Origin: Peptoniphilus ovalis
GTDB taxonomy: Bacteria; Bacillota; Clostridia; Tissierellales; Peptoniphilaceae
Reading direction: 5' to 3'
Assembly: GCF_018919265.1 (NCBI RefSeq)
Contig: NZ_JAHLQO010000004.1
Span: forward strand, 124,001-188,000
DNA: 64,000 nucleotides
Shown here in pieces: positions 35,770 to 43,097 of the stretch. Position 1 is the stretch's first letter; each line of letters opens with the position of its first letter. Under the pieces are notes generated by a model, which was not told the DNA's origin, made no database searches, and worked only from the letters and a program-made list of their open reading frames with translations. The translations under genes and the position numbers were made by a program.

Positions 35770-36023
35770 CTTATACCTTTTTGCGGATTAAAGTATCGTT
35801 GTTTTTTATCTAAACTTTTAAATTCTTCTTCTGTTAGTAGTCTTTGTACCGCTATCTTATAATCTTTACAATATGGATAGACCCATCTATCGATTATATT
35901 TCTTACTTTTAAAGCATCTTTTTTAGATTTAAGGTGAGCATGCTGTTCATACTCGCCATTTTCTCTTACTATAAGCCATGGTCTTTCATCGCACCTAGGC
36001 TTAAATTTTATACTTAGTTTCAT
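35766..36023 (-). CDS. Small phage protein, unknown
   Basis: The product is 85 residues, basic, with Trp/Tyr-rich segments (ERPWLIVRENGEYEQHAH) and DALKVRNIIDRWVYPYCKDY. No family recognised. It lies 12 bp after the phosphodiester-glycosidase frame and is coupled to the 74-residue gene by a 4-bp overlap. Confidence 0.55.
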   Translation of the reverse strand: MKLSIKFKPRCDERPWLIVRENGEYEQHAHLKSKKDALKVRNIIDRWVYPYCKDYKIAVQRLLTEEEFKSLDKKQRYFNPQKGIR

Positions 36024-36035
36024 AACATCTGCCTT

Positions 36036-36671
36036 TTAAATTACACTAACTATCGTATTTAATCTTCTTCTTTGGTCTTTAATAACTCTTCCTTCTGCCA
36101 CCATAGCTGTAGAGCCGCCACCATCTAGATTAAGAGCACTATAAAGTCTAAATTCTTTTAATAGGTCGTTTCTCGCATCAGTTAATGTTCGATTCTCTTT
36201 AGTTATTAGCAATAAGATTTTTCTGTCTTTAGTGTATGCAATCATTGTGTGTGGTGCATACCTCGATATATCTGCCATTGCTTGCTCTAACTTTAGGTTA
36301 TAGTCCGGATAAAGTGCATTGCCACCTATCGCCCATTTTACTTTTCCTAGCTTTTGTATTTCTGCAAGATTATTAAATCTATCCATGATTACGCCACCAT
36401 CTTCAAAACATACCATTGTACCTTTTCTAGCACCGCCATAATTATTAGTGTGAGAATTGCCACCTAAAGCTACATTGTCTTGCACTGCTATCTGCCATAT
36501 ACTATCTTTATTTTGTGGATTTTTAGTATCGAAGAATGTTCCGTTAATAGCAAAATCTCTTTTGCATTGTGATAGTGTTCTACCAGCTATGAAATTAATT
36601 CTTATGTTTAAAGGGTCTGTCTCTATTACATAGAAATTTCCCTTTTCATAGAACTTAGTCTCATTATTTAG
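36036..36671 (-). CDS. Phosphodiester-glycosidase (NAGPA) domain, read by -1 frameshift from amidase gene
   Basis: This frame is open from the end of the amidase gene to 36036 (211 codons). It encodes a whole NAGPA-type domain: KGNFYVIETDPL, CKRDFAINGTFFD, VCFEDGGVIMDR, and the signature ALNLDGGGSTAMV near the end. There is no ATG, GTG or TTG with a ribosome site before the domain; a GTG at 36485 would cut it in the middle. The frame is -1 relative to the amidase, and A AAA AAC directly precedes the amidase TAA, so it is probably the C-terminal part of an amidase fusion of about 463 residues. It may cleave a sugar-phosphate bond in the host wall. Confidence 0.65.
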   Translation of the reverse strand, partial: LNNETKFYEKGNFYVIETDPLNIRINFIAGRTLSQCKRDFAINGTFFDTKNPQNKDSIWQIAVQDNVALGGNSHTNNYGGARKGTMVCFEDGGVIMDRFNNLAEIQKLGKVKWAIGGNALYPDYNLKLEQAMADISRYAPHTMIAYTKDRKILLLITKENRTLTDARNDLLKEFRLYSALNLDGGGSTAMVAEGRVIKDQRRRLNTIVSVI

Positions 36672-37426
36672 TTTTTTTTTAATAATCTGCTAACGACTAC
36701 TGCAACTTCTGCTCTAGTTATTTCTTTATCAGGTCTGAAAGTTCCATCATCGAATCCAGTCATTATTTCTTTTTTTAGGACCTCGTCAATCTGTTTTTCT
36801 GCCCAATGTCCTTTATAGTCTTTCTCCATCTTCTTTTCCTCTTTCACCTTAGATATTTTATTAGATTCTAATGTTCCAAATTCTGAATCTTTAGATAAGT
36901 CTATTTGCCATTCTATAGGTTTTTTAATATCCTCTTTAAATTGCCACCACTTAGACCAATTGTTTTTACTCCAGCTACCAGGACAAATTTTTCCAGTTGC
37001 ATCGAAGTGCCTAATCACTCTTTCTATTGGAACTTTAAACTTAACCATTAGGTTTTTAGTTAATTCAACTAAATTCTTATATGCTTTTTCCTGGTCTATA
37101 TCGCTATTTATACATAATTCTATGCTTATACTGTTGCTATTATATGCATTTTTAATCCTATTAGGATTGTTAGCATATCCCCACTTATCACCTATAGACC
37201 AAGCCACGAACGAATCTCCTATAGTTTGAATAATCTCTTTATCATCAAGATAGTAGTGTGCTGACCCGTATCTAGTTGCTCCATTAAGATATCTTAAGTG
37301 ATTTTCTGCATCTGCACCCTTAGAACTATTTCCAGTATCGTGGATAACAATATATTTAATGTCGTCGTAACTTCTTTTTTTTCCTATCTGTTTTTTGTTG
37401 CTGATAGGCCTATACTTAAATTTCAT
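36668..37426 (-). CDS. Phage endolysin: N-acetylmuramoyl-L-alanine amidase with SLH domain
   Basis: This 252-residue protein has an amidase_2 domain at about 25-175 (IKYIVIHDTGNSSKGADAENH with zinc His, YLDDKEIIQTIGDSFVAWSIG, RVIRHFDATGKICPG with the later zinc His and Cys) and one SLH repeat at about 203-252 (YKGHWAEKQIDEVLKKEIMTGF.DGTFRPDKEITRAEVA). It would cut the amide bond between MurNAc and the peptide; the SLH unit binds secondary wall polymers in other proteins. It ends at a slippery A9-C-TAA, and a -1 shift there adds the NAGPA domain. Confidence 0.85.
   Translation of the reverse strand: MKFKYRPISNKKQIGKKRSYDDIKYIVIHDTGNSSKGADAENHLRYLNGATRYGSAHYYLDDKEIIQTIGDSFVAWSIGDKWGYANNPNRIKNAYNSNSISIELCINSDIDQEKAYKNLVELTKNLMVKFKVPIERVIRHFDATGKICPGSWSKNNWSKWWQFKEDIKKPIEWQIDLSKDSEFGTLESNKISKVKEEKKMEKDYKGHWAEKQIDEVLKKEIMTGFDDGTFRPDKEITRAEVAVVVSRLLKKN
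36671..36680 (-). other. Slippery A9-C sequence (A AAA AAC) at the amidase stop
   Basis: On the minus strand nine A and a C (36680-36671) come just before the TAA of the amidase, in frame as AAA AAA AAC TAA. A AAA AAC is a classical -1 slip heptamer. After a -1 slip the next codons are CTA AAT AAT GAG and the frame stays open for 211 codons. A9 could also vary in length during replication, or be an assembly error. Confidence 0.6.
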
Positions 37427-37438
37427 TTAAATCAACTC

Positions 37439-37807
37439 CTATAAATTCTTAGGACCTTTCTTTAAATCTTCAACTTCTTCATAAAGTTTTTCTATTTTAT
37501 CCAGTAATTCCCTTTTGCATACTTCGTTGTCACTTTGTACCGTTACAAGGACGTGTTTTAATTCTTCGATGGTTCTTTGAATGTCGTCTATCTTTTTATC
37601 CATTCTGTTGTGCATCTCCTTCGTGTCCTTTATAACTTCGGTACTGTTTTCCATTGCCTTTATATTCGCTCTAAAAGCATCTAAAAATTCTGATATAATC
37701 TTAGGTGACTTTTGTATTAGAGTTATTACTGCATATATAACTACGATAGATAGAGCCATTGACAAGCCTTTTTCTATCATAAAGGTTATAAATTTTTCGT
37801 TTGCCAT
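37439..37807 (-). CDS. Small membrane protein with coiled coil (holin-like)
   Basis: This 122-residue protein has one membrane helix at about 13-30 (KGLSMALSIVVIYAVITLI) and a long charged helix/coiled coil (60-115, NRMDKKIDDIQRTIEELKHVL). It lies 12 bp before the amidase gene. The layout and place suggest a second holin or an anchor that sets lysis time, but the family is not clear. Confidence 0.6.
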   Translation of the reverse strand: MANEKFITFMIEKGLSMALSIVVIYAVITLIQKSPKIISEFLDAFRANIKAMENSTEVIKDTKEMHNRMDKKIDDIQRTIEELKHVLVTVQSDNEVCKRELLDKIEKLYEEVEDLKKGPKNL

Positions 37808-37821
37808 CTCTCACCTCATTT

Positions 37822-38271
37822 TCATTCAATAATTCTATAATGTAAATCTAAAGCATTAGCTACATTTCCATAAGTATTTTGTAAATTCTTACCTAAAGTT
37901 ATAATTATGGAATTATTTTTTTTAATTGTTCTATCGCATTCAATTCTAAAAATATTACTTTTTACTTTAAAATCTAAGTATTGTACACCATAAGAACCAT
38001 CAACCGCACTAGGTGTCATTAATGTAATCTCCTTTACGGCATATATCCTAGCAAAATTCAAATCTATTTTAAATTCTGCTGTTTTCCATGGCCTATCCAC
38101 TAATGTTTTTGCCCCATAACTGGTACTCATGATTGAATCGCTATAAACTCTATATTCACAATTAGATTTTAACCAAATAATTTTCTCCCATAGAATACCC
38201 CCCCCATTAACAATTCGCTTAATATCAACGTTTGAAGAGGTTATTCTTTTTATTTTATTATCTATTTTCAT
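37822..38271 (-). CDS. Fibre-type protein with poly-G tract (phase-variable candidate 1)
   Basis: I start this at 38271 (149 residues) with AGAGGAATTT in front; the longer frame from 38316 has none. Residues 1-30 (MKIDNKIKRITSSNVDIKRI, then VNGGGILWEK) almost match the gene at 39588. The three Gly are encoded in a G8 tract. The remaining ~120 residues are beta-rich, like a receptor-binding head, and differ fully from the paralogue. A slip of +1 or -1 in G8 gives a stop within about 15 codons. It lies downstream of the fibre genes, so a virion-surface role is likely. Confidence 0.65.
   Translation of the reverse strand: MKIDNKIKRITSSNVDIKRIVNGGGILWEKIIWLKSNCEYRVYSDSIMSTSYGAKTLVDRPWKTAEFKIDLNFARIYAVKEITLMTPSAVDGSYGVQYLDFKVKSNIFRIECDRTIKKNNSIIITLGKNLQNTYGNVANALDLHYRIIE
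38185..38271 (-). repeat. 87-bp direct repeat, copy 1 (5' module of fibre-type gene)
   Basis: The first 87 bp of this gene match 40011-40097 at about 80 of 87 positions, in the same orientation, including the G8 tract. Downstream of it the two genes differ entirely. Confidence 0.85.
38198..38205 (-). repeat. Poly-G tract (G8), codons 23-25 of the 37822 gene
   Basis: Eight C on the plus strand, G8 in the coding strand, reading GGG GGG GGT. In DNA this AT-rich, a run of eight G is unlikely by chance. A +1 slip leads to TAA after about 12 codons and a -1 slip to TAA after about 9. Confidence 0.85.
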
Positions 38272-38358
38272 AAATTCCTCTTTTAAATCTATATAAAATG
38301 TAATTATTATTTTCAATTTTAAATAAGTAGGGAGCTACCTTTCGATAGCTCCAATCCC

Positions 38359-38502
38359 TTACTTATTTTCTTTTTCTTCTGTTAAGAAGCCAAGTCCTGA
38401 ATCAACTAGGATTTCTTTTACTCTAGCTTTTAATACCTTAGGTACTTGTGCATATGTGCATTTTTCAAGAATAATTCTTTGTGCAAAAAACATTGCCATC
38501 AT
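38359..38502 (-). CDS. Small phage protein, CD1375-like
   Basis: I start this at 38502 (47 residues) because GGGGGTGAAACC is an ideal ribosome site there. The product (FFAQRIILEKCTYAQVPKVL, then KARVKEILVDSGL) resembles the short CD1375-type proteins found after fibre genes in clostridial prophages: a start rich in hydrophobic residues, then VPxxLKxxVKxIL. Function unknown. Confidence 0.6.
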   Translation of the reverse strand: MMAMFFAQRIILEKCTYAQVPKVLKARVKEILVDSGLGFLTEEKENK

Positions 38503-38574
38503 GGTTTCACCCCCTTTAAAATAAAGTTTTATCCAATTAATAAAATTAATTAGCCCTTTCATAAAATCACCTCA

Positions 38575-39192
38575 TTAAGTAGTGGGTGAATCTGTATTAG
38601 TAGCTTCAGGCGGAATTGTTTCTAGACTTCCATAAACTATAGTTGCCATTTCTTGTATTAAGTCGTCTCTAAATGCTCCTTGTTCTTCTATCGCTTTTAT
38701 TTTTAATTCCAACTTTTCTGTTTCTGATATTTGAGGTCTAGGCTCTTCCTTAGGTTTAGGATATAAATATCTTTCTTCCTTTTGTATCAAGTCTCCACAT
38801 TTAGCTACAATAAAAAAGGAAGTCTCTTTATCGACCTCCTCTGTTACTAATTTATTATTTTCAATTCTTGCCTTTTCCGTTCCATCTACTTTAAACTCTA
38901 TTGTTTTATTGATTATATCTCCGTACTGGTCATAGACTTTGCCAGTTAAATTATAAAAATCTACTTCCATATTAGTTTCCACTGGTCTAGGTAATTCATA
39001 TTCCTCTATGAGTTCTGAATTACCTTTAAATTCTTCTTTAGGTAAAGCTTTAGATAAAATGTAAGCATCTTTTAAAATGTCGTCTTTTTGTCTGTTTTTG
39101 CTTATTATATTCACTTTATTGCAAGTGTTGTTTTTATAAATAATGGTTAATTCTGAACGTTCACCATCATCTATATAATTATATATTTTCAA
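38575..39192 (-). CDS. Phage structural-type protein, unknown
   Basis: This 205-residue protein has a beta-rich middle (VDFYNLTGKVYDQYGDIINKTIEFKV), with the look of an Ig-like domain, a Pro/Lys linker (YPKPKEEPRPQ) and a helical C-terminus (KLELKIKAIEEQGAFRDDLI). It lies among the fibre-type genes and is probably a fibre or fibre-associated protein. Confidence 0.55.
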   Translation of the reverse strand: MKIYNYIDDGERSELTIIYKNNTCNKVNIISKNRQKDDILKDAYILSKALPKEEFKGNSELIEEYELPRPVETNMEVDFYNLTGKVYDQYGDIINKTIEFKVDGTEKARIENNKLVTEEVDKETSFFIVAKCGDLIQKEERYLYPKPKEEPRPQISETEKLELKIKAIEEQGAFRDDLIQEMATIVYGSLETIPPEATNTDSPTT

Positions 39193-39203
39193 TATGTCAC
39201 CTC

Positions 39204-39572
39204 TTATCGAGTTCTATATACTATTGATGCCATTATGGCACATCTAGAGTCTTGTATTAATATTTGTATTTCTCCTAAATCGGTTATTATAACAGTATTA
39301 GGATATTTTGTATGGCTAGAATCTTTAGCGTTGTAGAACTTATACTCGCAGGTTGTCTCCTTCGGAATTAAACTGGATTTAAGATTAAGATTCATTCTAT
39401 AAGAACGCAACTCTTCAGGATTAGTATTGACTATGACTTCTGCGTACTTATTATCAAGTTTCCTCGCATGAATTATATATCCACTACCCTCAAAGACTTG
39501 ATAATCCAATACCCCCCCCCCAATCTCGTAAACTACGCCATTATAAGCTATTTTATTTATTTTTTTTGCCAT
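39204..39572 (-). CDS. Fibre-type protein with poly-G tract (phase-variable candidate 2)
   Basis: This 122-residue protein has AAAGGAGAATATAA before the ATG. The N-terminus (INKIAYNGVVYEIGGGVLDY) has the short 'NG..Y/W' start module common in phage tail accessory proteins, and its three Gly lie in a G10 tract at codons 18-20. The rest is beta-rich. A +1 slip gives TGA after about 9 codons, a -1 slip gives TAA after about 15. It lies between the two paralogous poly-G genes. Confidence 0.65.
   Translation of the reverse strand: MAKKINKIAYNGVVYEIGGGVLDYQVFEGSGYIIHARKLDNKYAEVIVNTNPEELRSYRMNLNLKSSLIPKETTCEYKFYNAKDSSHTKYPNTVIITDLGEIQILIQDSRCAIMASIVYRTR
39512..39521 (-). repeat. Poly-G tract (G10), codons 18-20 of the 39204 gene
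   Basis: Ten C on the plus strand, G10 in the coding strand, reading GGG GGG GGG G. This is the longest homopolymer of G/C I find in the window. It is the most slip-prone of the three tracts. Confidence 0.88.
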
Positions 39573-39587
39573 TTATATTCTCCTTTT

Positions 39588-40097
39588 TTATCTTATGAAT
39601 TCATAATAATAATCTCCCTGGAATCCACTATGAGGATATTGGTTTATGTTTTGATGTTTAATTAGATTTAAGAATTTTCCTTTTGAATAATGAGAAAATA
39701 CTTGTTCTTCCTCGTTTGTAATACCTATTTCTTCTGTATAAGTATCTACTCCAAATCCACCAAGATAATATCTTCTATATTTATAGAACTTGCCATCATG
39801 CTCATAGTAAAATGTACCAGTATCAACAGATTCTACATAGTTTTTACTTACTTCATTATTTAAAATAATTTTATTACCAATTAATTTACAAGTTTCATAG
39901 TAGTAATCTATGTTGTTATTATTTTCAACATCACGAATGAAACCTATTGCTCTTTTAGTTATTCTTCTATAAATCGCCTTTTTCTCGTACCTTTTCCATA
40001 AATACAATTTCTCCCACAGAATACCCCCCCCACTCACAATTCGCTTAATATCAGCGTTTGTAGAGGTTATTCTTTTAATATTATTATCTATTTTCAT
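39588..40097 (-). CDS. Fibre-type protein with poly-G tract (phase-variable candidate 3)
   Basis: This 169-residue protein has residues 1-30 (MKIDNNIKRITSTNADIKRI, then VSGGGILWEK) that match the gene at 37822; the next ~135 residues are unrelated to it, rich in Tyr and basic residues. G8 encodes the three Gly. A +1 slip gives TAG and a -1 slip TAA within about 25 codons. A shared start and variable end point to an adaptor module with exchangeable binding domains. Confidence 0.65.
   Translation of the reverse strand: MKIDNNIKRITSTNADIKRIVSGGGILWEKLYLWKRYEKKAIYRRITKRAIGFIRDVENNNNIDYYYETCKLIGNKIILNNEVSKNYVESVDTGTFYYEHDGKFYKYRRYYLGGFGVDTYTEEIGITNEEEQVFSHYSKGKFLNLIKHQNINQYPHSGFQGDYYYEFIR
40011..40097 (-). 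repeat. 87-bp direct repeat, copy 2 (5' module of fibre-type gene)
   Basis: Second copy of the 5' module at 38185-38271, about 92% identical, same orientation, 1.8 kb apart. Recombination between the copies would delete the intervening genes and join this start to the other binding domain. Confidence 0.85.
40024..40031 (-). repeat. Poly-G tract (G8), codons 23-25 of the 39588 gene
   Basis: Eight C on the plus strand, same frame position as in the paralogue, so the tract is conserved in position though flanking bases have changed (AGT before it here, AAT there). Confidence 0.85.
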
Positions 40098-40107
40098 GTT
40101 TCACCTA

Positions 40108-40599
40108 CTATCTACTGTATTTACTTGTTAAACTAATGGTAATATAAGCATCAATTAATTTTTTTGTGCTTAATAGACTTTTATGCACTTCCAAAGCGAG
40201 ATACCATTGTGGCTGTGTCGCTAGTTTGTTTTTCATATTATTTATAAAACTGGAACTCATCGTATCTTGCAATCCAAAGTAAATGCTTTCTTTTCTATCA
40301 ATACTTTTAAATCTGAAAATATCATTTGTGTTAGGGTATTGGATAGCATTTATTTTTAAAGTGGAATAATCTAAATATTCTGGCAAAAGCACTGGTTTAA
40401 TACAAAAGAAACGTTCATTACTGTTAAATCTTATTGGGTAACCAGGGTTCATAGTGTAATACCCATTATCAATTATATTTTTCTCGTCAAATAGATAGTA
40501 GAAATTTTTAAATGGATACTCCCAAACGACGTCATTTTTGCATAAAACTTTATTAATATTTCCATTAATTTTTATATCTTTTATATTTTTACTATTCAT
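40108..40599 (-). CDS. Fibre-type protein with related start, no poly-G tract
   Basis: This 163-residue protein has an N-terminus (IKDIKINGNINKVLCKNDVVWEYP) of the same type as its neighbours: short Ile/Lys repeats, then N-x-x-V/L-W-E. Where they have GGG it has KND, so it lacks the G tract and would be always on. The C-terminal part is beta-rich. It lies 10 bp before the 39588 gene. Confidence 0.6.
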   Translation of the reverse strand: MNSKNIKDIKINGNINKVLCKNDVVWEYPFKNFYYLFDEKNIIDNGYYTMNPGYPIRFNSNERFFCIKPVLLPEYLDYSTLKINAIQYPNTNDIFRFKSIDRKESIYFGLQDTMSSSFINNMKNKLATQPQWYLALEVHKSLLSTKKLIDAYITISLTSKYSR

Positions 40600-40603
40600 A
40601 AAA

Positions 40604-41131
40604 TCACTCTTTTATAAAATAAATTTTGCTTTCATCATTCTTTTGAGAAGTAGATAAAGCATTATATTGAGATTCTGTTAAAATTATCTGTTCTTTTAGA
40701 TTGGATAATTTAGTTTTATCTGCATTTGTATAGTCGTTTGAAGATAGAGCCTTTCCACTTATTTTATCTACTTTATTATTTAACTTAGTAGAGATGTTTG
40801 AATCTAAAGAAGATACACTACTTTTATTTTCTCTAGTTCTTTTATCAAAATCCCCTATCCAATCCTCTAAATCTCTTTGTGTATCTATTGATTGCCAAAC
40901 GTTAGAGGTGTTATAACCATCAGTTTTTGCTCTTGATATATCTTTCCCTGATAGACTAGAAAGTTTATTATTCCAAGTAGATTTTTCTGAATCTGTAACT
41001 AGTCTATGCGTACTATCTTCTCTTAATTGCGATAAATTGGTAGGTATAGAACTTGTATCAGCCTTTTTATCTAGCAATTCTTTAATCTTAATTATCAGCT
41101 GTTTTAAGCCGTTATAGTCTAATATCTTCAT
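40604..41131 (-). CDS. Tail fibre protein, short
   Basis: This 175-residue protein begins MKILDYNGLKQLIIKIKELL and contains VDKISGKALSSNDYTNADKTKLSNL, the standard phage fibre repeat (VDKxxGKxLSxNDYT..K.KL). It starts 2 bp after its neighbour at 41134, which has the same overall plan, so the two are likely paralogues. It is helical and trimer-forming in type. Confidence 0.7.
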   Translation of the reverse strand: MKILDYNGLKQLIIKIKELLDKKADTSSIPTNLSQLREDSTHRLVTDSEKSTWNNKLSSLSGKDISRAKTDGYNTSNVWQSIDTQRDLEDWIGDFDKRTRENKSSVSSLDSNISTKLNNKVDKISGKALSSNDYTNADKTKLSNLKEQIILTESQYNALSTSQKNDESKIYFIKE

Positions 41132-41133
41132 AA

Positions 41134-41751
41134 TCAGCTACCCATTGCTTCGTTAATTTCAGTATTGGTAATTGTCTTAATATCTTCCTCTTTTAGATAG
41201 CCAGTTAAATCAACTCTAGTGTCTGTATCTCCTATTTTCTCCCACTTACTATTAATGTATAACCATTCTTCGTAAATGTTGTTTCCACTTCCTTTAGGGC
41301 CTACTAGATAAATTACATTTTCTTCACCGGTAGATGGTCTAGTCGCTAATATTTCCTTTTTCATGTGTCTAGCATCATTAATTAATGTTTTAACCTTAGT
41401 TTCATTAATAAAAGAATTGTCATTAACTAATTCCGATAACTTTGTAGGTACTTGAATATTTACTTCTGTACCTGAAATATTAAGTAGTGTTCCGTTTCTC
41501 TTAATCTTTGTAATTACGTTCTTTTCAGCACCATCTTCAAGTCCATTAATCTTATTTAGGTTAGCACTTGATAATAGTCCAGGCTCTTCACTAGTTGCTA
41601 CGTTATAAGTTTTTAAGGTCGAAAGTTTTTGTTTTTCTTCATTTGTAAAGTTATTTTCTGATAGTCCTTTTCCGCTTTCCACTTGTACGAATCTTTCTTT
41701 AATAAGTCCTATTAGTTGTTGTAATCCTTGTAAATCAAGAAATTTTGCCAT
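41134..41751 (-). CDS. Tail fibre protein
   Basis: This 205-residue protein starts AKFLDLQGLQQLIGLIKERF and carries the fibre phrases GKGLSENNFTNEEKQKLSTL, GLLSSANLNKINGLEDGAEKN and a C-terminal YLVGPKGSGNNIYEEWLYINSKWEKIGDT, a common fibre end domain. It likely takes part in host binding. Confidence 0.72.
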   Translation of the reverse strand: MAKFLDLQGLQQLIGLIKERFVQVESGKGLSENNFTNEEKQKLSTLKTYNVATSEEPGLLSSANLNKINGLEDGAEKNVITKIKRNGTLLNISGTEVNIQVPTKLSELVNDNSFINETKVKTLINDARHMKKEILATRPSTGEENVIYLVGPKGSGNNIYEEWLYINSKWEKIGDTDTRVDLTGYLKEEDIKTITNTEINEAMGS

Positions 41752-41763
41752 TTGTTTCCCCCT

Positions 41764-42333
41764 CTAAAATAGTTTTAGGATTTCTCCCTCTTCAATCGGT
41801 CTAATGTTTATATCTTCTAGCATCTTCTTTTGGTCGTCTTCTCTAAAGAAGTCTATACCTACTATTGGCGTTTTCCCATCTTTGCCATCTTTACCATCTC
41901 TCCCAGGCGGTCCTGGTGGTCCTTGTGGCCCTTGAATGTTAGGTAAGAATGGATTAGTAACTATATTTCCACATACTCCACTTGCTAATGTTTCTCTTAT
42001 TTCTAAATAAAAATCACCGCTTGTAAAAACGGTGTCGCCATTAATTATTTTGATTTCACATTCGCATATGCCGGGTACTGATAATACTGAATCTGTCAAG
42101 ACTACCTTTAATACTTTTTTATCTTTTGAAACTTCGCAAGGTAGTTTTATTTTTACCTTGTCTGGTCTTTTAATTAAGCAATATATATCTTCGTGTTTTC
42201 CTATTGTTATTTCCCTTAGATTTTCAACTAACTTAATATATATAATGCTTGTTTTGTTGTCGTATTGGACTAATCCACTGTAAACTCCGCTGTTGTTTTT
42301 TACGTCTACTTTTATATTAAAAAGTTTCTCCAT
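41764..42333 (-). CDS. BppU-like baseplate/fibre protein with collagen-like stretch
   Basis: This 189-residue protein has a beta-sandwich N-terminal domain (1-125) with the pattern of BppU-type upper baseplate proteins (YDNKTSIIYIKLVENLREIT, GICECEIKIINGDTVFTSGDFYLEI), then a collagen-like run GPQGPPGPPGRDGKDGKDG at about 135-155. The collagen part would trimerise and serve as a stalk. Confidence 0.72.
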   Translation of the reverse strand: MEKLFNIKVDVKNNSGVYSGLVQYDNKTSIIYIKLVENLREITIGKHEDIYCLIKRPDKVKIKLPCEVSKDKKVLKVVLTDSVLSVPGICECEIKIINGDTVFTSGDFYLEIRETLASGVCGNIVTNPFLPNIQGPQGPPGPPGRDGKDGKDGKTPIVGIDFFREDDQKKMLEDINIRPIEEGEILKLF

Positions 42334-42341
42334 TAAATCAC

Positions 42342-42911
42342 CTACCCTAGTATATTAAGTAAGCTTTTTAAGTCCTCACTAGATGCACTCTCAATGTTTA
42401 ATTTATAGTTAAATTCTTCTATTTGTTTCTTTATAGTCTCTAATATTTCTTTAGATTCATCTGATATGCCTTGCATAGTTGCGATGTTACTTTTAGACAA
42501 CTTGTATTGGTCCATAAAGGATTCTACAATGTTCTTTTCAAGATTTATCTTTATGCTAGATTCACTATTGATGTTACTTTGTCTAATAATTATCTTGTCG
42601 CCCTTTAAAAGAAATACATCATCTAGAGTTTTTCTTTGAGGATTTAGTGAAATATTTGTTGTTTTTCCATTACTGAATAGGTCTATATTTACAGTTCCAA
42701 TATCTGCTAACATCTCAATCTTATACATTCCCATTACAAGAATTGGTATTTCTTTAGGAATATCAGTATTTTTTATTGAATAATTAATTTTTTCTTTGAT
42801 GTTAGGCTTTAATGTTTCGTAAACCTCTTTATTGTTGTTAATCTCTTCAACTATTTCATTGATTCTACTAATGATTTCAACTAAATATGAATGGCCTTTT
42901 AATTTTTCCAT
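42342..42911 (-). CDS. Fibre/baseplate accessory protein, unknown
   Basis: This 189-residue protein is helical at both ends (IISRINEIVEEINNNKEVYE; EILETIKKQIEEFNYKL), with a beta-rich middle. It lies between the coiled-coil small protein and the BppU-like gene. A structural role in the fibre is likely; no family is recognised. Confidence 0.55.
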   Translation of the reverse strand: MEKLKGHSYLVEIISRINEIVEEINNNKEVYETLKPNIKEKINYSIKNTDIPKEIPILVMGMYKIEMLADIGTVNIDLFSNGKTTNISLNPQRKTLDDVFLLKGDKIIIRQSNINSESSIKINLEKNIVESFMDQYKLSKSNIATMQGISDESKEILETIKKQIEEFNYKLNIESASSEDLKSLLNILG

Positions 42912-42923
42912 TTAATCACCTAA

Positions 42924-43097
42924 TTAAAAAGAAGATAGCTTATTAACTATCTTCTTAATCTCTTTTAATTCATTTTTTAATAATTCTACTTCCGTTCTTA
43001 ACTCAACCACTTCTTTATTCAAGCTTTCTATAGTAGGTTTATCTTCGTCTTTAGGTTTAAAGATTAAAGCTCCTACTGCATCTACTCTATAACTCAT
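42924..43097 (-). CDS. Small coiled-coil protein (57 residues)
   Basis: The ATG at 43097 opens a 57-codon frame ending at 42924, filling the gap between the large fibre gene and the next one. The product begins MSYRVDAVGALIFKPKDED and then forms a heptad-type coiled coil (LNKEVVELRTEVELLKNEL). Short coiled-coil proteins at this place are often fibre-attachment or trimer factors. Confidence 0.65.
   Translation of the reverse strand: MSYRVDAVGALIFKPKDEDKPTIESLNKEVVELRTEVELLKNELKEIKKIVNKLSSF

What the first reader, a model, noticed from the sequence alone, without database searches (positions are those of the whole stretch)
37822..40097. Three poly-G tracts in tail-fibre genes: a candidate phase-variable phage receptor cassette
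Three genes within 2.3 kb each hold a pure G tract in the first 25 codons: G8 (38198-38205), G10 (39512-39521) and G8 (40024-40031). I see no other G/C run this long in the AT-rich window. I followed the frames: for all three, both +1 and -1 slips give a stop within about 25 codons. All three are ON in this sequence. This is the pattern of contingency loci in bacterial surface genes; here it is in prophage fibre-type genes, so virions from one lysogen could carry eight ON/OFF combinations. The tract encodes a GGG linker between a start module and a binding-type domain, so it is also tolerated as a hinge.
Basis: partly seen in the sequence, partly recalled or inferred. Interest (0 to 1): 0.9.

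Follow-up and report, generated by a model that had tools for sequence, protein, structure and literature searches.

The report
Slippery G-tracts in prophage tail genes
A dormant virus in a Peptoniphilus bacterium carries runs of eight to ten Gs near the start of three genes beside its tail genes, and matching genes in related viruses are broken between two reading frames exactly at such runs, so these viruses probably switch tail parts on and off by DNA-copying slips.

Summary
Three pure G-runs (G8, G10, G8) lie at codons 23, 18 and 23 of three genes at the tail end of a contractile-tailed prophage in a Peptoniphilus-group genome. They are the only G/C runs longer than 5 in the window, and all five runs of 8 or more in the 2.1 Mb genome lie in this prophage. 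Both other frames stop within 6-20 codons.

Relatives give the key evidence. The two G8 genes share a 90-nt head, tract included. A related head carries a tract in another prophage (G091, read through) and in P. genitalis, where the gene is split between frames exactly at the run. A P. duerdenii gene with a head similar by eye is split likewise. Tractless heads of the same type have at most one Gly in the loop, so the run is not there to encode a conserved Gly-Gly-Gly.

Best reading: poly-G slipped-strand ON/OFF switching of tail-tip, probably receptor-binding, proteins. This is known in lytic Campylobacter Fletchervirus phages; here it would be in temperate phages of Gram-positive anaerobes.

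Not shown: length variation within one strain, virion location, receptor binding. Homopolymer sequencing error could explain the split alleles. The G10 gene has one detected relative, without a tract.

The parts
37822..38271 (-). Tract gene 1, 149 aa, G8 at codon 23; head shared with tract gene 3, different body
   Evidence: no match to it at the thresholds used in Pfam, only weak ones in PHROGs
38198..38205 (-). G8 tract of gene 1
38182..38271 (-). 90-nt head module of gene 1, 92% identical to that of gene 3
39204..39572 (-). Tract gene 2, 122 aa, G10 at codon 18, another head type (KINKIAYNGVVYEI)
   Evidence: only itself in 130 family genomes at E 0.01; 36% over 44 aa to tractless G091 gene L161:9282-9698
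39512..39521 (-). G10 tract of gene 2
39588..40097 (-). Tract gene 3, 169 aa, G8 at codon 23
40024..40031 (-). G8 tract of gene 3
40008..40097 (-). 90-nt head module of gene 3
40108..40599 (-). Sister gene with the same type of head and no tract (loop CKND before VVWE)
40604..42333 (-). Three tail-type genes just upstream in the transcript (weak tail PHROGs; BppU_N domain in 41764-42333)
36668..37426 (-). Amidase (Amidase_2 plus SLH domain) downstream; used as anchor to find related prophages

Best explanation
The three tracts are slipped-strand contingency switches. When the DNA is copied, a pure G-run can gain or lose a G; the gene is then read out of frame right after its N-terminal head and ends within 6-20 codons, so the C-terminal domain is not made. 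The genes sit at the end of the tail operon of a contractile-tailed temperate phage and most likely encode tail-tip accessory proteins, probably receptor-binding: the shared head would dock on the baseplate and the swapped C-terminal domain would meet the host. A population of lysogens would then release virions with differing sets of these proteins beside a tractless, always readable sister protein. Shown: tracts, frame anatomy, rarity in the genome, recurrence of the run in related heads, alleles of relatives split at the run. Inferred: slippage within a strain, virion location, receptor binding, benefit.
For: All five G/C runs of 8 or more in the genome lie in this prophage. Both other frames stop quickly in all three genes. 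Run kept while residues differ: N-GGG in gene 1, S-GGG in gene 3, Y-R-GG in G091 with another codon register. P. genitalis gene: 22-codon head and 223-codon open body in different frames, meeting at a G9 run; the body is 62% identical over 228 aa to an intact P. catoniae gene with a tractless head and matches virion structural PHROGs. P. duerdenii: intact tractless gene followed by a 41%-identical paralog split at a G10 run. A rabbit-gut Clostridia MAG tail-fibre gene is split at a G11 run. Tractless heads: loops CKND, SNNE, NGNK, SGEV. In 134 non-redundant amidase loci, 6 of 6 G8+ runs lie within 2.5 kb upstream of the amidase (19% of the bases) and no C8+ run occurs. In same-genus host genomes 4 non-phage coding runs are also split, including a DNA methylase.
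Against: No reads, so no length mixture is shown; the three genes here are all readable. Each split allele comes from one assembly; homopolymer miscalls could make them. Searches for natural length variants in viral contigs found none for three sites and one record with the same G10 for P. duerdenii, apparently the same assembly. Tracts of genes 1 and 3 lie in one duplicated 90-nt repeat, so they may be one event. The P. duerdenii heads resemble the others by eye only: the pattern did not pick them and BLASTP was not significant. The G10 gene's relative has no tract. The C-terminal domains have no family match and no usable fold. Runs of 8 slip less often than longer ones (recalled).
Confidence: 0.72

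Rival explanations
1. The runs only encode a useful Gly-Gly-Gly turn; the pure G spelling is an accident copied with the head, with no switching role.
For: Genes 1 and 3 share one 90-nt repeat including the tract; all three window genes are readable; runs of 8 are short.
Against: Tractless heads have at most one Gly in that loop; the encoded residues differ between tract heads while the run is kept; GGG is the rarest Gly codon, 70 of 1,175; gene 2 with another head type has a run too; related genes are split at the run.
Confidence: 0.13
2. The split alleles of relatives are homopolymer sequencing or assembly errors, or one-way decay of degrading prophages, so they say nothing about switching.
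For: Each comes from one assembly; homopolymers are error-prone in some methods (recalled); the G091 prophage has its amidase gene interrupted by another ORF, so such prophages do decay.
Against: Bodies downstream stay open over 223 codons in P. genitalis and about 90 in P. duerdenii with no other break; breaks fall at the run in 3 of 9 coding tail runs seen; host surface genes and a methylase of the genus show the same split.
Confidence: 0.25
3. The runs act as programmed slippage sites for polymerase or ribosome, so each gene always makes a mix of short and long product without DNA change.
For: Pure runs allow it in principle (recalled); split alleles could still give some full product that way.
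Against: G-runs are not the usual slippage sequence for this (recalled); read-through and split DNA alleles coexist among relatives, which DNA switching explains directly.
Confidence: 0.08
4. The genes switch, but the products are not receptor-binding: they are other late proteins (lysis-linked, superinfection or morphogenesis factors).
For: No family match for the three genes; no usable structure.
Against: They lie between tail genes and the lysis genes; a head of the same type carries a virion-structural-type body in P. genitalis and P. catoniae and a weak Ig-like match in P. nemausensis (below the curated cut-off); bodies are swapped behind a constant head.
Confidence: 0.3

Closest known systems
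PolyG phase-variable receptor-binding proteins of Campylobacter Fletchervirus phages (Sorensen et al. 2021, Cell Rep 35:109214; not held; seen only through passages of PMC10579305, PMC11868660 and PMC11959909)
   Same: Phage-borne polyG runs said to switch receptor-binding proteins; host genus also uses polyG switching
   Different: Lytic phages of a Gram-negative host (recalled) against a prophage of Gram-positive anaerobic cocci; no Campylobacter phage among tblastn matches for two of the three proteins; switching shown there by experiment, here inferred
Poly-G contingency genes of Campylobacter, Neisseria and others
   Same: Pure 7-11 G runs near the gene start, frame loss on slip, relatives in both states (passages of PMC9311878 and PMC8713573)
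   Different: There cellular surface-modifying genes; here prophage tail-end genes
Invertible tail-fibre or receptor-binding cassettes (Gin, Cin, Min; Rin of bifidophages, PMC6109161 passages)
   Same: Reversible variation of tail-tip proteins, also in prophages of Gram-positive gut bacteria
   Different: They need a recombinase and inverted sites; no good inverted repeat pair found at 36000-43000 (best long arms 74-89% complementary); recombinase genes were not searched for
Diversity-generating retroelements (Bordetella phage type; recalled)
   Same: Phage-borne variation of a tail-tip protein
   Different: Codon-level mutagenesis by reverse transcriptase; not specifically searched here

Membership tests
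Poly-G slipped-strand contingency locus | Pure homopolymer inside the reading frame near its start, rarer than chance allows | tested here: met
Poly-G slipped-strand contingency locus | A shift of frame in either direction truncates the product | tested here: met
   native alternative frames stop 6-20 codons after the run in 3 of 3 genes
Poly-G slipped-strand contingency locus | Relatives in readable and split states at the run | tested here: met
   G091 readable; P. genitalis and P. duerdenii split; each from one assembly, P. duerdenii head alike by eye only
Poly-G slipped-strand contingency locus | Length mixture within one clone | not testable with these tools
   no reads; no natural variants in viral contigs
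Poly-G slipped-strand contingency locus | Switching changes a phenotype | not testable with these tools
   needs bench work
Fletchervirus polyG receptor-binding proteins | Homologous protein in Campylobacter phages | tested here: not met
   tblastn of 2 of the 3 proteins against 50,697 phage records: no match, and 5 weak matches, none in a Campylobacter phage; the G10 protein was not searched
Fletchervirus polyG receptor-binding proteins | Product binds a host receptor | not testable with these tools
   no family match, no usable fold
Invertible tail-fibre cassette | Inverted crossover repeats around swapped gene ends | tested here: not met
   8 imperfect inverted pairs of 18-23 nt in 36000-43000, none near-perfect at gene ends; recombinase not searched
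Diversity-generating retroelement | Template/variable repeat pair with reverse transcriptase | tested here: inconclusive
   only long direct repeat pair in 36000-43000 is the shared 90-nt head; reverse transcriptase not searched

The most novel reading that the evidence does not exclude
Temperate phages of Gram-positive anaerobic cocci, and perhaps of other gut Clostridia, carry a recurring tail-tip cassette: one always-readable protein plus one to three poly-G-gated proteins that share a docking head and differ in the host-facing domain. A lysogen population would release virions with a random mix of tail-tip sets, facing hosts that themselves switch surface proteins and a DNA methylase by poly-G runs. 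Poly-G switching of phage receptor recognition would then be a general strategy, not a Campylobacter peculiarity.
Probability: 0.45. Interest if true: 0.78.

Novelty: new variant of a known kind. Interest (0 to 1): 0.62.

Why it matters
[quoted passage not shown] If confirmed, this carries the mechanism into temperate phages of human-associated Firmicutes, ties it to a recognisable N-terminal module that can be searched for, and makes a question directly testable by counting reads: does one lysogen produce virions with different tail-tip sets? The host side, poly-G switches in surface-type genes and a methylase of the same genus, is a lead of its own.

Tried and rejected
Viral-contig pattern scan for a G7+ run followed by a (I/V)LWE-type end (89 stretches): in the part of the output that was shown (one search was cut) I saw no viral contig with the N-terminal module; the shown ones look like chance G-rich matches. 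Profile search of viral contigs with the module: 52 candidates, none confirmed. Single proteins as queries gave 3 and 2 loci; a four-sequence amidase alignment gave 80 viral and 80 genome loci, both capped lists. AlphaFold models of two of the three proteins were unusable (mean pLDDT 36.8 and 29.8), so no fold search was run. Natural length variants in viral contigs: none for the two window G8 sites or P. genitalis; one record for P. duerdenii, 2,112 of 2,112 31-mers shared with the genome locus, so apparently the same assembly. Relatives of the G10 protein in 130 family genomes at E 0.01: only itself.

Rejected: inverted-repeat cassette; a conserved Gly-Gly-Gly as the sole reason for the run. 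In one search my automatic frame test marked L007 as read-through; the native sequence has a stop codon at the tract border, so I treat it as non-coding. In one search two of 162 loci (L168, L169) were left out because they were not amidase hits, and 26 of 160 were dropped as redundant. Two of the seven runs (L206, L273) look non-coding.

Full report
What is there. The window is G000:C4:124001-188000 of a 2.10 Mb genome. Its genus, as grouped by the tool, also holds G002, which has the contig length of Peptoniphilus genitalis SAHP1 (1,917,962). The minus-strand genes from about 35 kb to the end of the window and on into the next stretches form a contractile-tailed prophage: holin, amidase, tail-end genes, baseplate, tail sheath, major head protein, portal and terminase, with a repressor-like regulator further on. 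Between the lysis genes and the baseplate genes lie three genes with pure G-runs at 38198-38205, 39512-39521 and 40024-40031.

More than chance. No other G or C run in the window exceeds 5; an order-1 model expects 0.12 C-runs of 8 or more. In the whole genome I count 19 distinct runs of 6 or more; 14 are exactly 6, none is 7, five are 8 or more, and these five lie in this prophage. GGG is the rarest Gly codon in minus-strand window ORFs of 100 aa or more: 70 of 1,175, tract codons included.

Anatomy. With the native sequence unchanged, both other frames end 6 to 20 codons after each tract, while the native frame runs on 101 to 144 codons. Genes 1 and 3 share a 90-nt head at 92% identity, tract included, and then diverge: 79% amino-acid identity over 34 residues and no longer match. 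The neighbour 40108-40599 has a head of the same type with the loop CKND and no tract. The run therefore replaces a short loop inside the module, just before (I/V)(L/V)W(E), rather than joining two modules. Gene 2 has another head type.

Relatives of the G8 heads. A profile of four heads (three of the window, one of G091) was run on 130 family genomes. The strong matches are its own members in this genome (3) and in G091 (1.5e-18), then G002 (4.4e-5) and G124 (1.1e-4), then weaker ones such as G051 (0.0032), a second G002 gene (0.016) and G017 (0.024); 69 of 130 genomes had some match at E 10, mostly weak. G091 has a G9 run read through as Y-R-G-G-V-L-W-E, another codon register. G002, P. genitalis, has an intact tractless-head gene followed by a gene whose 22-codon head and 223-codon body lie in different frames at a G9 run. 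That body is 62% identical over 228 aa to an intact gene of G124, P. catoniae, whose head is tractless, and matches virion structural PHROGs. G017, P. nemausensis, has a tractless head on a weak Ig-like match below the curated cut-off. P. duerdenii (L254) has an intact tractless gene followed by its 41%-identical paralog, split at a G10 run; its heads look alike to the others by eye only, since the pattern did not pick them and BLASTP gave E 0.15 at best. Supported heads thus number eight: four with tracts (three readable, one split) and four without; the P. duerdenii pair would add one of each. In this prophage and P. genitalis the tractless gene lies upstream of the tract genes; P. duerdenii shows the same order.

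Wider context. Among 162 loci fetched by two tail-end proteins there are seven distinct G8+ runs, all on the strand of the amidase. In 134 non-redundant amidase loci, 6 of 6 lie within 2.5 kb upstream of the amidase, a bin of 316,274 of 1,650,055 bases, and there is no C8+ run. Besides P. genitalis and P. duerdenii, runs inside open frames occur in L180 and L268 (read through) and in L274, a rabbit-gut Clostridia MAG, split. The L274 gene matches tail-fibre PHROGs; the L180 and L268 genes match none, though L180's neighbour is a tail fibre gene. These three lack the module and their runs lie deeper in the gene, so they are a looser class. Over all, 9 coding tail-end runs were seen: 6 readable, 3 split.

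Host side. Of 14 same-genus genomes, 11 have G8+ runs, 39 distinct sites by my count. An automatic frame test on all 39 gave 6 read-through (one an artefact, see Tried and rejected), 5 split and 28 unclear or non-coding. The split ones are the P. genitalis tail gene, two paralogous surface-type genes in G005, a secreted-type gene in G013 and a DNA methylase in G009 that resembles type III Mod (both labels from recall of motifs). Some of the rest lie, by eye, upstream of signal-peptide proteins. Poly-G slippage therefore looks like a habit of this genus. One library search with Peptoniphilus, phase variation and prophage found 663 papers with two or more of the terms; among the 20 listed only one held Peptoniphilus together with phase variation, a sialic-acid review that I did not open.

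Interpretation. What recurs is the run, not the residues; it sits where any slip ends the gene; relatives show readable and split states at it; and it lies in tail-end genes with constant heads and swapped bodies. Slipped-strand ON/OFF variation of tail-tip proteins is the best account. Receptor binding is inferred from position and modular build only.

Known or new. The mechanism is reported for Campylobacter Fletchervirus phages (Sorensen et al. 2021; not held; I saw passages of PMC10579305, PMC11868660 and PMC11959909 that describe it). The searches listed no paper whose title or abstract start describes poly-G switching of tail genes in temperate phages of Firmicutes; these lists are partial and most subscription papers are not held. 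I also saw passages of PMC10877375, PMC4004267, PMC9311878, PMC8696038, PMC8713573, PMC6109161, PMC9863714 and PMC7291426. I file it as a new variant of a known kind.

Limits. No reads, no same-strain variants, split alleles from single assemblies, unknown C-terminal folds, genes 1 and 3 possibly one tract event, and a weaker case for the G10 gene, whose one detected relative has GCT GGT GGG and no tract.

Noticed in passing
L008:16477-16484 and L008:18331-18338 (G000:C4:204477 and 206331): The two other G8 runs of the genome lie in the same prophage just before start codons, where a Shine-Dalgarno sequence would be; length changes there could tune translation.
   Followed up: partly
L013, L345, L019, L017 (same-genus genomes): Host coding G-runs (10 to 16 G) with frames split at the run in surface-type genes and in a methylase that resembles type III Mod: the genus may have a wider poly-G switching set.
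   Followed up: partly
L028, L014, L016, L018: G-runs of 8 to 13 lie, by eye, upstream of signal-peptide proteins, where they could affect promoter spacing.
   Followed up: no
L353 (G008:C1:576937): A run of 23 G in a same-genus genome with no clear open frame around it.
   Followed up: no
L161:6132-7187: In the G091 prophage the amidase gene is in two parts with a 351-aa ORF between them that looks like an HNH homing endonuclease (label from recall).
   Followed up: no
window 36668-37426: The phage amidase ends in an S-layer homology domain (Amidase_2 plus SLH).
   Followed up: no
G000:C4:283000-297500 (L327): A second prophage of the same genome has a related amidase but no G7+ run in the 14.5 kb fetched.
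   Followed up: partly
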